58,552 nucleotides of DNA from Burkholderiaceae bacterium (GTDB lineage Bacteria; Pseudomonadota; Gammaproteobacteria; Burkholderiales; Burkholderiaceae_E): the NCBI GenBank assembly GCA_021463505.1, contig JAJTYR010000021.1, forward strand, positions 1-58,552, given 5' to 3'. Under the pieces are notes generated by a model, which worked only from the letters and a program-made list of their open reading frames with translations, was not told the DNA's origin and made no database searches. The position numbers and the translations under genes are program-made. Of this stretch, positions 54,711 through 58,552 are shown in pieces; within the stretch, counting starts at the first letter, position 1; the number at the start of each line of letters is the position of its first letter.

Positions 54711-54813
54711 TCATCGTGGTCGCGCTGTCGGGCCCGCCCGGCGCGTGCAGTCGTTTCTGCACGCGAACGTCGATGCGATACTCGGCCCCGAGGTTCGTGC
54801 GCGGAGGCGCCCC

Positions 54814-56304
54814 ATGCAGATCCCGATCCTGGTCGACGAGGCATCCGCGGTCGGCCTGCAGGACCAGATCTTCGACCAGATCCACACGCTGATCCTCGAC
54901 GGGCGGCTTCCCGCCGGCTCGGCGTTGCCGGCCTCGCGTTCGCTGGCGCGCGACCTGGGCGTGTCGCGCAACACCGTGCTGGGCGCCTACCAGCGTCTCG
55001 CCGAGCAGGGGCTGGTACGCACCCGCGAGCAGGCAGGCACCTATGTTGCGCCGCACCAGCACGCGCTCGGGCCACGCCACGCACTGCACACGCCGGACGA
55101 CCCGCAAGACGCGCAGGATGACCTCGGCGCCGCGCTGCAGCGGCGCCTGCGGTTTCGCTCCCGCCCTCATCGCGTGCTCAGCCCGCATCCGGTGCCACCG
55201 CACTACGACTTCTGGATCGGGCAGGTCGACCCGCGGCTGTACCCCACCAGAGCCTGGCGCACCCTCATCGCGCGGATGCTGGCGGCGCCAGCCGAGCCGC
55301 TGTGCCGCTACGGCGATCCGCAGGGGCTGCCGCAGTTGCGCGCAGCGATCGCCGCCTACGTCGGCGCAGCCCGCGGCATCGCCACCGACGCGTCGCGGGT
55401 GTTGATCACCAACGGCATCCAGGAAGGCCTGAGCCTGCTCGCGCGACTGCTGGTGCGGCCCGGTGTCGAGGTCGCGCTGGAAGACCCCTGCTATCGCGGT
55501 GCAAGCAGCGTGTTCGCCGATCACGGCGCACGCCTGTGCCCCGTGCCTGTCGACGGCGACGGGATCGACCCTGCGGCACTGCCGCCATCGGCCGCGCTGG
55601 TCTACGCCACGCCGTCGCACCAGTACCCGATGGGCGCGACCCTCTCGCTGGCGCGGCGCGAGGCGCTGCTCGCCTGGGGCCGCAGGGCCGGCGCCTACAT
55701 CGTCGAAGACGACTACGACAGCGATTTCTACTACGACGAGGCGCCGCTGCCGGCGCTCAGGAGCGACGACCGTCATGACCAGGTGATCTACCTCGGCACG
55801 TTCTCGAAGTGCCTCGGCGCGGGGTTGCGTCTCGGCTACATGATCCTTCCGCGCCGGCTGGTCGGCCCGGCGCGCGCGGCCAAGGCCCTGCTCAGCAACT
55901 GCCAGCCCTGGCTCGACCAGGCCGCGCTGGCCGCCTTCGTCGCCGAAGGCGATCATGCGCACCACCTGCGCCAGTTGCGACGCATCTGCGCGGCGCGGCG
56001 CGATCACCTGCGCGCCGCGATCGCGCACCAGTTTCCCGGCGCGCGCGTCGCGGGTGCCCACAGCGGCATGCACCTCGCGGTGCACCTGCCACCGTTGATG
56101 CCCGGCGCGCAGCAGATCGAACCGGCGGCACGGCGAGCCGGCGTGGGCGTCTACGGCGTCGAGAGCGCCAATGCGCAACTGTTCGACGCACGGCGCTCCG
56201 GCGCACTCGACCGCTTCCTGTTGTTCGGCTACGCCGCGCTGGACGAAACCGCGATCAGCGAGGCGATCCTCGCGCTGCGACGCACCATCGACACGCTGCG
56301 CTGA
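54814..56304 (+). CDS. MocR/PdxR-type regulator (GntR DNA-binding domain plus aminotransferase-like domain)
   Basis: A 496-residue fusion. The N-terminal GntR winged helix (about residues 10-80) includes LPASRSLARDLGVSRNTVLGAYQRL. The C-terminal fold-type I aminotransferase domain has YGDPQGLPQLRAAIA, VEDDYDSDFYYD and the PLP lysine K332 in GTFSKCLGAGLRLGY. ATG 54814 follows GGAGG at a good distance. These proteins sense PLP or amino-acid-derived ligands and usually regulate a neighbour. No pdxST or gabT is in view; the next gene on the same strand is haoA, 171 bases away. Confidence 0.92.
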   Translation: MQIPILVDEASAVGLQDQIFDQIHTLILDGRLPAGSALPASRSLARDLGVSRNTVLGAYQRLAEQGLVRTREQAGTYVAPHQHALGPRHALHTPDDPQDAQDDLGAALQRRLRFRSRPHRVLSPHPVPPHYDFWIGQVDPRLYPTRAWRTLIARMLAAPAEPLCRYGDPQGLPQLRAAIAAYVGAARGIATDASRVLITNGIQEGLSLLARLLVRPGVEVALEDPCYRGASSVFADHGARLCPVPVDGDGIDPAALPPSAALVYATPSHQYPMGATLSLARREALLAWGRRAGAYIVEDDYDSDFYYDEAPLPALRSDDRHDQVIYLGTFSKCLGAGLRLGYMILPRRLVGPARAAKALLSNCQPWLDQAALAAFVAEGDHAHHLRQLRRICAARRDHLRAAIAHQFPGARVAGAHSGMHLAVHLPPLMPGAQQIEPAARRAGVGVYGVESANAQLFDARRSGALDRFLLFGYAALDETAISEAILALRRTIDTLR

Positions 56305-56475
56305 GCCTGCAGCGCACTGGCACCATCGACAACGCGGCAACTGGTACTTCGCCGCCGCCACCCGCCCGTCCGATACTCGCCCGCAGGCACCACGCGATCG
56401 CCGACGGCGTCGCGCAAGCGCGCCGCCACGACAAGCGCCGCGACGCAAAAGGCGGCCACATGGACGGAGGGGAAC

Positions 56476-58230
56476 ATGAGACTCGCGCAGCTGTCGTTCG
56501 CCATGGTGCTGTCGCTGCTGGCGTGGATCGCCCCGGCGCAGGCGGCCATTCCCGACTCGGTGCCCGACGAGACGCTGAAGGCGCTGGAACTCGACCGCAA
56601 CGCGACGCCGGCACAGCTTCACGATGCGCTGAGCAAGCGGGTGCAGTCCGAGAAGGACGGCTACGGCAAGGGCAGCCACGCGAAGTTCTGGGAACCGATC
56701 CCGATGAGCAAATATCTGGCGCCGTCGCTGTTCTACAAGGCCCCCGACGGACTCGACATGGTCGTCAAGCGCGAAGACTGTGTCGCGTGCCACGAGAAGA
56801 TCACCGCAGGCCACGTGAGCGCGTGGAAGAAATCGCTGCACTCGGACCTCGATGCGCTGCGCGCGCTGCCGCAGGCCGATTCGCGCGCCTACAAGAAGGC
56901 GCATCTGGCCGAGGTCGAAGGCAACCTGCGTTCGCACGGCATCCTCGGCAACAGCGAGCCGCTGCGGCAGGTCAACTGCATCGACTGCCACATGGGCGTG
57001 GGCAAGGCGCAGGGCAACCACGCCAGGGATCTGCGCATGCCCGACACGACGGTCTGCGGCACCTGTCACCTGCGGCAGTTCGCCGAGCGCGAATCCGAGC
57101 GCGACACGCTCGCCTGGCCGCAGGACCAGTGGCCCGCCGGCCGTCCGTCGCATGCGCTCGACTACAAGGCGAACGTCGAGACCGCCACCTGGGCCGCACT
57201 GCAGCAGCGCGAAGTCGCCGAGGGCTGCACGATGTGCCACACGAACCAGAACAAGTGCGACAACTGCCATGGCCGCCACGAGTTCTCGGCGGTCGAGGCA
57301 CGCAAGCCGCAGGCCTGCTCCACCTGCCACAACGGCGTCGACCACAACGAGTTCGAGGCGTTCATGCTGTCGCGCCACGGCGTGAACTTCCAGACCACCG
57401 GCCACACCTGGGACTGGAACGCGCCGCTGTCGAAGGCGATCGAGAAGGGCCAGACCGCACCCACCTGCGCCTACTGCCACATGGAGTACAAGGGCCAGTT
57501 CACCCACAACGTGGTGCGCAAGGTGCGCTGGGGGTTCCTGCCGTTCAAGAACATCGCCGACAACCTCGGGCACCCGTGGTTCACCGATCGGCGCGAGGCG
57601 TGGAAGGGCACCTGCCAGAACTGCCACTCGGCGAGCTTCGCCGAGGCGTACCTGACGATGATGGACAAGGGCATCGTTTCGGGGATGGAGCTGGTCGAGG
57701 AAGTCAGGCCGGTCGTGCAGGCGCTGTTCAACGACAGACTGATGGTCGGCCAGAAGACCAACCGACCGGCGCCCTTCGCGCCCGAGAAGGACGAAGCAGG
57801 CGGCTTCTTCGCGTTGTTCATGGCCAGCGGCAACAACCCGACGGTGGTCGACCGCACCTTCGCGGAAATGTGGGAACAGCACGTCGCGAAGCACTACAAA
57901 GGGCTCGCGCACGCGCACCCCGGCGGCTTCACCTACAGCGAGGGCTGGTCGCAGCTCGTCAGGAGCAAGACGATCATCCTCGAGGAAAACACGAAGCTGC
58001 GCGAGCAGGCCGCGTTGACGAAACGCGTCGCCGCCCTCGAGGCGCGCGGCGGCGTGAAGAAGACCTCGCTCGGCGGACCGGCTGCCGGGTCGCACGTTGC
58101 GTCACTGCCCGGGTCGTTCCCGGGTTGGGGCGGCGGCGCGGCGGCCGCAGGCAGCCTGATGGCGTTGTCGGGCGTGCTGCTGCTGCGGCGCTCGCGCAAA
58201 CGCGAAGACGCCTCCGGGCACGACGCGTGA
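56476..58230 (+). CDS. haoA: hydroxylamine oxidoreductase, octaheme cytochrome c
   Basis: A periplasmic enzyme oxidising hydroxylamine, with electrons passing to c-type cytochromes. The product is 584 residues. A signal peptide ends AQA at residue 23. Eight CXXCH sites start at residues 102, 168, 194, 251, 261, 281, 331 and 380. The ordered motifs match the Nitrosomonas enzyme as I remember it: LRSHGILGN, CGTCHLRQFAERESERDT, WPAGRPSHALDY, REVAEGCTMCHTNQNKCDNCH and GLAHAHPGGFTYSEGW. Y487 in the last motif (mature about 464) is where the Tyr crosslinked to heme P460 (Tyr467 in N. europaea) should fall. A C-terminal helix (about 554-570) with RRSRKR after it would anchor it in the membrane. GGAGGGG precedes the ATG. 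Confidence 0.93.
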   Translation: MRLAQLSFAMVLSLLAWIAPAQAAIPDSVPDETLKALELDRNATPAQLHDALSKRVQSEKDGYGKGSHAKFWEPIPMSKYLAPSLFYKAPDGLDMVVKREDCVACHEKITAGHVSAWKKSLHSDLDALRALPQADSRAYKKAHLAEVEGNLRSHGILGNSEPLRQVNCIDCHMGVGKAQGNHARDLRMPDTTVCGTCHLRQFAERESERDTLAWPQDQWPAGRPSHALDYKANVETATWAALQQREVAEGCTMCHTNQNKCDNCHGRHEFSAVEARKPQACSTCHNGVDHNEFEAFMLSRHGVNFQTTGHTWDWNAPLSKAIEKGQTAPTCAYCHMEYKGQFTHNVVRKVRWGFLPFKNIADNLGHPWFTDRREAWKGTCQNCHSASFAEAYLTMMDKGIVSGMELVEEVRPVVQALFNDRLMVGQKTNRPAPFAPEKDEAGGFFALFMASGNNPTVVDRTFAEMWEQHVAKHYKGLAHAHPGGFTYSEGWSQLVRSKTIILEENTKLREQAALTKRVAALEARGGVKKTSLGGPAAGSHVASLPGSFPGWGGGAAAAGSLMALSGVLLLRRSRKREDASGHDA

Positions 58231-58552
58231 ACCCGCTGCGGCGGCGCGCGCCGGGCGCAGTCCTGCTCGTCGCAGGACTCGCCCTCGCCGCCTTCGGCGC
58301 GAACGAACTGCTGCGCACGAAGGTACCGCCGTACCGCTACGAGGTGGTCGATGCTGCACCGCGGATCGACGACCCGGCGGTCGCCGACACGTTCGCGCAG
58401 GCGGGGCTCGGCCTGCGCCAGGCGCGGCTCGTCGAGAACCGCACCGGCGCGACGCTCGCCGAGCTGCGCTTCGGCGATGGCGTCGACGGGCCGGTGCTGT
58501 TCGATGGTGACGCCGGCGAGCACCTGAGCGGGTGCATCGACTTCTACTTCGC
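58227..58552 (+). CDS. haoB: HaoB-like protein, 5' part (cut by window edge)
   Basis: The frame starts at GTG 58227, overlapping the haoA stop as GTGA, and runs open to the window end, 109 residues. Residues 5-28 form a single N-terminal hydrophobic segment after an Arg-rich start (MNPLRRRAPG), so it is a membrane-anchored or exported protein; PPYRYEVVDAAPRIDDP follows. haoB follows haoA in ammonia and methane oxidisers, and position plus topology support this name. The sequence alone would not identify it with certainty. Confidence 0.7.
   Translation, partial: MNPLRRRAPGAVLLVAGLALAAFGANELLRTKVPPYRYEVVDAAPRIDDPAVADTFAQAGLGLRQARLVENRTGATLAELRFGDGVDGPVLFDGDAGEHLSGCIDFYF

What the first reader, a model, noticed from the sequence alone, without database searches (positions are those of the whole stretch)
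56476..58552. Genuine P460-type hydroxylamine oxidoreductase with haoB in a GC-rich, Burkholderiales-like genome
Seen: eight CXXCH motifs, signal peptide, C-terminal anchor, TYSEGW motif with Y487 at the expected place for the P460 crosslink, and a coupled downstream gene starting GTGA. Known: haoA-haoB-cycAB is the hydroxylamine-oxidation cluster of ammonia oxidisers; reductive HAO relatives lack the crosslinking Tyr. Inferred: this organism oxidises hydroxylamine, although the rest of the window looks like an ordinary Burkholderiales heterotroph and not like Nitrosomonas or Nitrosospira. It could be a new ammonia oxidiser, a hydroxylamine detoxifier or a recipient of the cluster.
Basis: partly seen in the sequence, partly recalled or inferred. 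Interest (0 to 1): 0.88.

Follow-up and report, generated by a model that had tools for sequence, protein, structure and literature searches.

The report
Regulated hydroxylamine-oxidation module without ammonia oxidation
This bacterium carries the enzyme with which ammonia-oxidising bacteria burn hydroxylamine, but no sign of the enzyme that makes hydroxylamine; beside it lies a vitamin-B6-type regulator with its own DNA switch, a pairing that recurs in many other bacteria and suggests that they sense and consume hydroxylamine made elsewhere.

Summary
Confirmed: window 56476-58230 encodes a canonical octaheme P460-type HaoA (Y487 aligned with the crosslinking Tyr; identical in 88 of 88 rows), then haoB, cut by the contig end. 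The genome (97.7% complete) holds a second, complete haoA-haoB-cycA-cycB cluster and a cbb (RuBisCO, FBPase, PRK) cluster, but no amoA, amoB or amoC match. HaoAB without ammonia-oxidation genes in Burkholderiales is already in print in one sentence (PMC8061750).

Not found in print in my searches: a MocR regulator (GntR domain + PLP aminotransferase fold) sits directly upstream. Relatives accompany hao in 42 of 50 other loci (23 of 23 with full flanks), in four arrangements, and in 0 of 17 ammonia-oxidiser and 0 of 13 methanotroph-type loci. They form nearly one clade whose tree tracks the HAO tree. A direct repeat TGGYACCA-N16-YGGYACTT precedes haoA; a strict pattern occurs twice in the 3.58-Mb genome, before its two haoA genes.

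Best reading: a MocR-controlled hydroxylamine-oxidation module in an AMO-less, potentially autotrophic bacterium. Sensing by oxime formation on PLP is inferred. On these trees the beta-proteobacterial ammonia-oxidiser HAO branches inside the regulated group (rooting uncertain). Not an ammonia oxidiser on present evidence.

The parts
54745..56304 (+). MocR-family regulator (GntR winged helix + fold-type-I PLP aminotransferase domain), proposed regulator of hao; exact start codon uncertain
   Evidence: Pfam GntR 61.3 bits and Aminotran_1_2 91.5 bits; GabR is among the best solved relatives, with the PLP lysine aligned; relatives beside hao in 42 of 50 other-group loci
56318..56349 (+). proposed operator: direct repeat TGGCACCA-N16-TGGTACTT, boxes 24 bp apart
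   Evidence: spacing enrichment, leave-one-out matrix and genome-wide pattern search
56476..58230 (+). haoA: octaheme P460-type hydroxylamine oxidoreductase (dehydrogenase), 584 aa
58227..58505 (+). haoB, 5' part; continues on contig C58 of the same genome
   Evidence: phmmer 76.6 bits to a relative's HaoB; remainder at G000:C58:31235-32002; 55-nt overlap
58506..58552 (.). contig tip that does not match haoB, probable assembly artefact
   Evidence: diverges from C58 and from the HaoB reading right after the 55-nt overlap

Best explanation
The locus is a hydroxylamine-oxidation module under a dedicated MocR regulator, in a bacterium without detectable ammonia monooxygenase. HaoA oxidises hydroxylamine in the periplasm; in the second cluster CycA (c554) and CycB (a NapC/NirT-type quinone-reducing cytochrome) can pass electrons to the quinone pool, so the cell can respire hydroxylamine and, having a cbb operon, might fix CO2 with that energy. 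Hydroxylamine comes from outside (ammonia oxidisers, anammox, denitrifiers) or from side reactions. The MocR binds a 24-bp-register direct repeat upstream of haoA and switches haoA on when hydroxylamine is present, most simply because hydroxylamine attacks the regulator's PLP aldimine and leaves an oxime. Shown by computation: the genes, the MocR-hao association, the specific direct repeat, the missing amoA and amoC matches, the cbb genes. Inferred: catalysis, electron route, binding, ligand, direction of regulation. My odds: MocR regulates hao through this repeat 0.85; the inducer is hydroxylamine or a product of it 0.6; by oxime formation on PLP 0.45.
For: HaoA identity. Second copy with haoB, cycA, cycB and its own MocR in the same genome. 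AMO: G000 and 7 relatives 0 of 8 for amoA and for amoC, control genome positive; in 50 HAO-bearing genomes amoA/pmoA in 2, both methanotrophs; 0 of the 8 named isolates L043, L044, L046, L056, L065, L068, L072, L075. MocR next to hao: 42 of 50 other loci, 23 of 23 with full flanks; 0 of 17 and 0 of 13 in ammonia-oxidiser and methanotroph-type loci; four arrangements, so more than frozen synteny. Among 61 relatives the 9 hao-linked MocRs score 402 bits or more against the window's, every other listed match 345 or less. Tree: 48 hao-linked MocRs plus 2 others are one side of a branch (SH-aLRT 99); Mantel r 0.62 with the HAO tree, 0 of 2000 permutations as high. Operator: 24-bp box spacing in 22 of 48 MocR+ upstream regions, shuffles at most 3 at any spacing; leave-one-out matrix 43 of 48, against 0 of 5 ammonia-oxidiser and 0 of 13 methanotroph-type regions; strict pattern exactly twice in G000, both before haoA. 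PLP site: K312 kept in 46 of 48 (window's copy included); Y205, D279, Y281, R319 in 48 of 48. cbb operon. Precedent, from passages: DnfR, a MocR-family regulator, governs the Alcaligenes dnf cluster whose DnfA oxidises hydroxylamine (PMC12575085, PMC9136411, PMC9478400).
Against: No experiment. The genome's own C34 MocR has Arg, and L077's has Asn, at the PLP lysine, so PLP sensing cannot hold for every member. The loss of GabR's carboxylate-binding Arg207 (Gly in 48 of 48) is not specific: 0 of 20 background MocRs have Arg there either. Alphaproteobacterial loci have weak or no sites by the matrix (about 7 bits or less). DnfR lies outside the hao-MocR clade and its upstream regions lack the site. 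Two non-hao MocRs fall inside the clade (L114 in an HAO-bearing genome, L115 in a genome without HAO). L060 has pmoA matches and the operator, but no MocR in view. Methanotroph-type L083 and L104 show neither pmoA nor MocR, so lack of MocR does not simply follow from having AMO/pMMO.
Confidence: 0.7

Rival explanations
1. Detoxification: HAO removes periplasmic hydroxylamine to protect PLP enzymes; energy gain is incidental. A PLP-type regulator would suit this well.
For: The window cluster and the rest of its HAO group were not seen to have cycAB; seven of 18 species compared in the genus have a strong HAO match, so it is accessory. The Alcaligenes hydroxylamine cluster carries SHMT, a transaminase and a pyridoxal kinase (passage in PMC9136411), as expected if PLP is the target.
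Against: The same genome keeps a complete haoA-haoB-cycA-cycB set with a quinone-type cytochrome and a cbb operon.
Confidence: 0.4
2. The MocR senses another amine or PLP itself (for example a GABA-like amine or an ammonia-derived metabolite), and hao is one output.
For: Known MocR regulators respond to GABA, taurine, ectoine derivatives or PLP (passages in PMC5320631, and listing); no ligand was tested here.
Against: The strict operator pattern lies almost only at hao: 31 of 34 hits in 32 genomes are at hao or its MocR; the GABA carboxylate ligand Arg207 is missing in 48 of 48.
Confidence: 0.25
3. New ammonia oxidiser: amoCAB is present but lies in an assembly gap, as often happens with multi-copy genes in binned genomes.
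For: A Nitrosomonas bin (L099's genome) also gave no amoA match in the same search, so absence from a draft is not proof.
Against: 0 of 8 HAO-bearing genomes of this family for amoA and for amoC, six of them recorded as at least 90% complete; 0 of 8 named isolates of other HAO-bearing species for amoA.
Confidence: 0.05
4. Chance or hitchhiking: MocR genes are common in these bacteria and merely travel with hao.
For: MocR-like matches are numerous (6 in G000 at E 0.001 or better).
Against: Nearly one clade, four arrangements, tree congruence, and a specific operator upstream of haoA even where MocR lies elsewhere or off the contig.
Confidence: 0.07
5. The HAO works reductively or as an NO-producing side branch of denitrification.
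For: HAO-family proteins do this in other lineages (recalled).
Against: Crosslinking Tyr conserved in 88 of 88; close match to Nitrosomonas HAO, weak to anammox chains; linkage to haoB and, in eight of the compared clusters, cycAB.
Confidence: 0.08

Closest known systems
haoA-haoB-cycA-cycB hydroxylamine module of Nitrosomonas and Nitrosospira (HURM; name recalled, also a search term)
   Same: Octaheme HAO with the Tyr, overlapping haoB, and in the C34 copy the same gene order through c554 and cM552
   Different: No amoA, amoB or amoC match; a MocR next to the cluster and an operator before haoA, neither seen at the ammonia-oxidiser loci examined (MocR 0 of 17; operator 0 of 5 scored)
HaoAB of Comamonas and Burkholderiales bins in thiocyanate reactors (PMC8061750, one passage seen)
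   Same: HaoAB with 8 CXXCH, ammonia-oxidation genes not identified; the 83%-identical relative L034 comes from isolate SCN18_13_7_16, whose name fits those reactors (inference from the name)
   Different: In the passage seen, no regulator, operator or second cluster is discussed
MocR/GabR regulators (GabR of Bacillus subtilis; regulons reviewed in PMC5320631, passages seen)
   Same: GntR winged helix plus aminotransferase-like PLP domain, conserved PLP contacts, direct-repeat type operator
   Different: Regulates a multiheme enzyme for an inorganic nitrogen compound; lacks Arg207; small residue at 431 in 48 of 48 (F or Y in 13 of 20 background)
DnfR of the Dirammox cluster (Alcaligenes; passages in PMC12575085 and PMC9136411; the primary papers not held)
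   Same: MocR-family regulator of hydroxylamine-oxidation genes; Gly at 207, PLP Lys kept
   Different: Outside the hao-MocR clade, regulates an unrelated diiron enzyme, no shared operator

Membership tests
Oxidative P460-type HAO | Eight CXXCH haems | tested here: met
Oxidative P460-type HAO | Tyr aligned with the P460 crosslink Tyr | tested here: met
   Y487 on the Tyr of TYTEGW; 88 of 88 rows
Oxidative P460-type HAO | Groups with ammonia-oxidiser and methanotroph HAO, not with reductive or anammox relatives | tested here: inconclusive
   Far better match to Nitrosomonas HAO than to anammox chains; the two anammox outgroup rows had branches of 6-9 and did not root the tree reliably
Oxidative P460-type HAO | Covalent crosslink, trimer, hydroxylamine oxidation | not testable with these tools
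   Needs protein
Ammonia-oxidising bacterium | amoCAB | tested here: not met
   0 matches in G000 for PF02461, PF04896, PF04744; G050 control positive for the first two; draft genome, 97.74% complete
Ammonia-oxidising bacterium | haoAB-cycAB | tested here: met
   C34 cluster
Ammonia-oxidising bacterium | Calvin cycle genes | tested here: met
   RuBisCO large, FBPase, PRK, LysR regulator
MocR/GabR regulators | GntR winged helix fused to a fold-type-I aminotransferase domain | tested here: met
MocR/GabR regulators | PLP lysine | tested here: met
   Window copy Lys; 46 of 48 overall; the C34 copy of the same genome has Arg
MocR/GabR regulators | Binds direct-repeat operator and responds to an amine through PLP | not testable with these tools
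   Only the candidate operator was found
Dirammox DnfR | Falls with DnfR in the MocR tree | tested here: not met
   DnfR rows fall among background MocRs

The most novel reading that the evidence does not exclude
These bacteria are hydroxylamine specialists: a MocR ('HaoR') detects hydroxylamine by letting it capture its own PLP cofactor as an oxime, turns on haoAB, and the cell respires hydroxylamine made by neighbours, in some lineages fixing CO2 with it, without ammonia oxidation. The beta-proteobacterial ammonia oxidisers took up this regulated haoABcycAB module and dropped the sensor once their own monooxygenase made hydroxylamine a constant internal intermediate.
Probability: 0.25. Interest if true: 0.9.

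Novelty: new variant of a known kind. Interest (0 to 1): 0.72.

Why it matters
HAO is widely used as a marker of nitrification. Here dozens of genomes without detectable ammonia monooxygenase carry the true P460-type enzyme under a regulator and operator of its own, so hao reads need not mean ammonia oxidisers. If the regulator senses hydroxylamine through PLP, it would be a genetically tractable hydroxylamine sensor and would explain why MocR regulators turn up twice independently beside hydroxylamine oxidation (hao here, dnf in Alcaligenes). It would also make the origin of the hydroxylamine half of bacterial ammonia oxidation testable, and point to hydroxylamine cross-feeding, relevant to nitrous oxide from wastewater reactors.

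Tried and rejected
Rejected: a new ammonia oxidiser (no amo match); haoA as a compositional alien (inside the range of five neighbours; the MocR, -0.878, is the least typical of the seven genes scored); DnfR as a close relative of this MocR; the loss of the GabR Arg residues as specific evidence for hydroxylamine (background MocRs lack Arg207 too); contig-end mis-assembly as a threat to haoA (only the last 47 nt are doubtful).

Led nowhere or weak: rooting the HAO tree with two anammox rows (branches 6-9, the rows fall in different places); NCBIfam offers only hydrazine dehydrogenase far below its cut-off (136.5 of 900 bits); Pfam has no family for HaoB; a search for the operator before the genome's own ccm operon found none above 10 bits; the structural aligner library was not available. 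Start codons for the operator work were chosen by a simple rule and are wrong in at least one row (L041). My first gene caller missed several genes on GC-rich strands, so hao-cluster genes were taken from protein similarity instead.

Grouping caveat: 'ammonia-oxidiser' and 'methanotroph-type' loci were grouped by record title and tree position. Of the 17 ammonia-oxidiser loci only L099's genome was searched for amoA, and it gave none (a bin); of the 13 methanotroph-type loci three were searched (L083, L084, L104) and only L084 gave pmoA. The 80 loci are the best 80 of 224 relatives, so more distant HAOs were not surveyed. L034, L035, L050 and L053 are the same genomes as L017, L018, L019 and L020; L034 and L035 were left out of trees and motif work, the pairs L050/L019 and L053/L020 stayed in, so 48 rows hold 46 distinct MocRs. 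L071's MocR is in pieces and was left out of the 48.
Full report
OBSERVATION. The ORF at 56476-58230 encodes a 584-residue protein with eight CXXCH motifs and TYSEGW at Y487. It matches Pfam Multi-haem_cyto at 467.7 bits and, over almost its whole length, the solved aerobic HAO of Nitrosomonas (E 6e-182), with Y487 on the equivalent Tyr; anammox HAO-like chains match at 1e-51 or worse. In an alignment of 88 HAO rows, Y487, D289, H290 and the eight haem-binding Cys and His positions are the same in 88 of 88. haoB overlaps the haoA stop, runs off the contig and resumes on contig C58 of the same genome. The two contigs share 55 nt; the window's last 47 nt then depart from both C58 and the HaoB reading.

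GENOME. The genome (3.58 Mb, 120 contigs, 97.74% complete, 0.34% contaminated) has two haoA genes. The second, on C34, is followed by haoB, cycA (Pfam Cytochrome_C554) and cycB (Pfam NapC/NirT) and then by its own MocR. About 8 kb beyond the haoB remainder on C58 lies a cytochrome c maturation operon; CcmI-, CcmA-, CcmC-, CcmF- and CcmG-type proteins are supported by Pfam. A full-length RuBisCO large subunit (444.6 bits) sits beside a LysR regulator, FBPase and phosphoribulokinase. No match was found for amoA or amoC, while G050, a genome with three haoA copies that groups with Nitrosomonas in the HAO tree, gave 3 amoA and 5 amoC matches in the same searches; amoB was searched only in G000, without a positive control. 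In 61 relatives HAO matched in 11; two of these are weak matches to other multihaem proteins; in the genus 7 of 18 species have a strong match, one more is in another genus of the family, and one is G050.

HAO WITHOUT AMO ELSEWHERE. A scan of genome contigs found 224 relatives and returned the best 80, L034-L113. They include isolates of Comamonas, Castellaniella, Allopusillimonas, Mesorhizobium, Oceanibacterium, Roseovarius and Sedimenticola besides ammonia oxidisers and methanotrophs. Of 50 of these genomes searched for PF02461, two matched: Methylotuvimicrobium (L084) and a Methylocystaceae bin (L060). A Nitrosomonas bin (L099) did not match, so absence from a bin is weak evidence; none of the eight named isolates matched. 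HaoAB in Comamonas and Burkholderiales bins without ammonia-oxidation genes is noted in one passage of PMC8061750.

THE REGULATOR. The gene directly upstream of haoA in the window is a MocR: GntR domain plus aminotransferase domain. Relatives of it sit beside hao in 42 of 50 loci that are neither ammonia-oxidiser nor methanotroph-type; all 8 without it have a contig end within 5 kb downstream of haoA, and among loci with more than 7 kb upstream and 9 kb downstream it is 23 of 23. It is 0 of 17 at ammonia-oxidiser loci (2 with such flanks) and 0 of 13 at methanotroph-type loci (7 with such flanks). As scored the positions are downstream same strand 16, upstream same strand 12, downstream opposite 10, upstream opposite 4; one of the first group (L051) is really upstream, its haoA frame having been read too long. 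In 61 relatives, the nine hao-linked copies score 402 bits or more against the window's MocR and all other listed matches 345 or less. In a tree with 20 background MocRs chosen as the next-best matches, the 48 hao-linked ones and two others (L114, a paralogue in an HAO-bearing genome; L115, from a genome without HAO) are one side of a branch (SH-aLRT 99). MocR and HAO tree distances correlate (r 0.62, 0 of 2000 permutations as high).

ACTIVE SITE. Against GabR, whose residue roles I took from passages of PMC6917764, the PLP contacts Y205, D279, Y281 and R319 are kept in 48 of 48 and the PLP lysine K312 in 46 of 48. The exceptions are the C34 copy of this genome (Arg) and L077 (Asn). The GABA-carboxylate ligand R207 is Gly in 48 of 48, and R430 is kept in 6 of 48. 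Among the 20 background MocRs R207 is kept in 0 and R430 in 3, so these losses are compatible with a ligand lacking a carboxylate but not specific. Position 431 is small (G, S, A) in 48 of 48 against F or Y in 13 of 20.

THE OPERATOR. Upstream of haoA the box TGGCACCA recurs (8-mer in 20 of 48 regions, shuffled maximum 10). Two boxes 24 bp apart occur in 22 of 48 MocR+ regions, while 300 dinucleotide shuffles never exceed 3 at any spacing; in 27 regions without a MocR in view it is 5. A leave-one-out matrix passes the 99% shuffle threshold (mononucleotide shuffles, 5.3 bits) in 43 of 48; 24 of them exceed 18 bits and several alphaproteobacterial ones are marginal. It passes in 0 of 5 ammonia-oxidiser and 0 of 13 methanotroph-type regions and in 6 of 9 others without a complete MocR in view. 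Those six (L039, L048, L054, L058, L060, L064) are all in the part of the HAO tree where MocR is the rule. The strict pattern TGGYNCCA-N16-YGGYNCTW, searched in 32 genomes, hit 34 times in 24 genomes. In G000 it hit twice, before each haoA. Of the 34, 31 lie at hao or its MocR, one beside a hao-type MocR with no hao in view (L155), two elsewhere (L134, L157). The pattern was derived partly from these loci. Its reversed control gave 0 to 10 hits per genome (5 in G000), so the place, not the number, is the evidence. It gave 0 in five HAO-less congeners, in G050 and in G060, and 0 in G022, whose site has 23-bp spacing. With the matrix over 876 kb of the 48 loci (training sites included) 35 sites exceed 18 bits: 29 at haoA starts, 4 at MocR starts, 1 between, and 1 about 100 bp before the CcmI-type gene of L017. 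The window site is 56318-56349.

CCM. A CcmF-type gene occurs within about 10 kb of haoA in 22 of 49 MocR+ loci, often with other ccm genes (named from sequence and, for the C58 homologues, Pfam). In some lineages the module thus brings its own haem-attachment machinery.

EVOLUTION. In the HAO tree (88 rows, SH-aLRT only) the 18 ammonia-oxidiser rows form a clade (100) that groups with four MocR-linked haoABcycAB clusters of AMO-less genomes, the C34 copy of this genome among them (97), inside a 26-row group (100) whose other members are also MocR-linked. The methanotroph-type clade has MocR-linked rows (L088, L091) as neighbours. Unless the root lies within the ammonia-oxidiser clade, the regulated state is older there and was lost in ammonia oxidisers. 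The anammox rows did not fall in or next to that clade, but their branches are too long to trust.

PRECEDENT. The Alcaligenes dnf cluster (Dirammox), whose DnfA oxidises hydroxylamine to N2 (passages of PMC9478400), is governed by DnfR, a MocR-family regulator (passage of PMC12575085), and includes a transaminase, SHMT and a pyridoxal kinase (passage of PMC9136411). I located dnf-like clusters through the AurF family (10 of 151 genomes over its cut-off; gene names by order and eye). DnfR is a separate MocR lineage with no shared operator. So MocR regulators appear to have been recruited twice to hydroxylamine oxidation.

PRINT CHECK. 'MocR' and 'hydroxylamine' co-occur in 13 papers of the library; I read passages in seven (dnf cluster or citations of it), the other six by listing only, with unrelated titles. 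The MocR regulon survey PMC5320631 has no 'hydroxylamine' and no 'hao' in its main text (its supplements were not seen). I found no report of a MocR beside hao in these searches; subscription papers are mostly not held.

VERDICT. The HAO itself is ordinary and its presence without AMO is already known. The dedicated MocR with a specific operator, conserved across Alpha- and Gammaproteobacteria (in the GTDB sense) and absent from the ammonia-oxidiser and methanotroph-type loci seen, is the new part and gives a concrete, testable mechanism.

Noticed in passing
L034:11788-12798 (HaoB of the 83%-identical relative); HaoB generally: HaoB is predicted with high confidence (mean pLDDT 90.6) as one membrane helix plus a soluble domain; the nine Foldseek matches at E 0.001 or better are oligosaccharyltransferase (STT3/PglB) or OST-complex entries, though with low TM (0.28-0.33 by query). 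HaoB carries WWD, the start of the OST WWDYG motif (motif recalled), in 70 of 85 haoB frames, truncated ones included.
   Followed up: partly
G000:C34 MocR (L003:17575-19197) and L077 MocR: These two hao-linked MocRs have Arg or Asn in place of the PLP lysine, so they may not bind PLP covalently; in G000 the window's MocR may serve both operators.
   Followed up: partly
L155 (G107:C108): A hao-type MocR with the operator behind it, followed by a LysR-type gene and what looks by eye like a PQQ-dependent dehydrogenase; no hao in view.
   Followed up: no
L017:3661-3695: A strong operator-like site (23.9 bits) about 100 bp before a CcmI-type gene, suggesting that haem attachment may belong to the same regulon in that species.
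   Followed up: partly
L071 (Roseovarius sp. FR_34): The MocR beside hao is split into three matching frames, possibly a pseudogene or a sequencing error.
   Followed up: no
window 58506-58552: Last 47 nt of the contig disagree with the continuation on C58 after a 55-nt shared end: probable assembly tip.
   Followed up: yes
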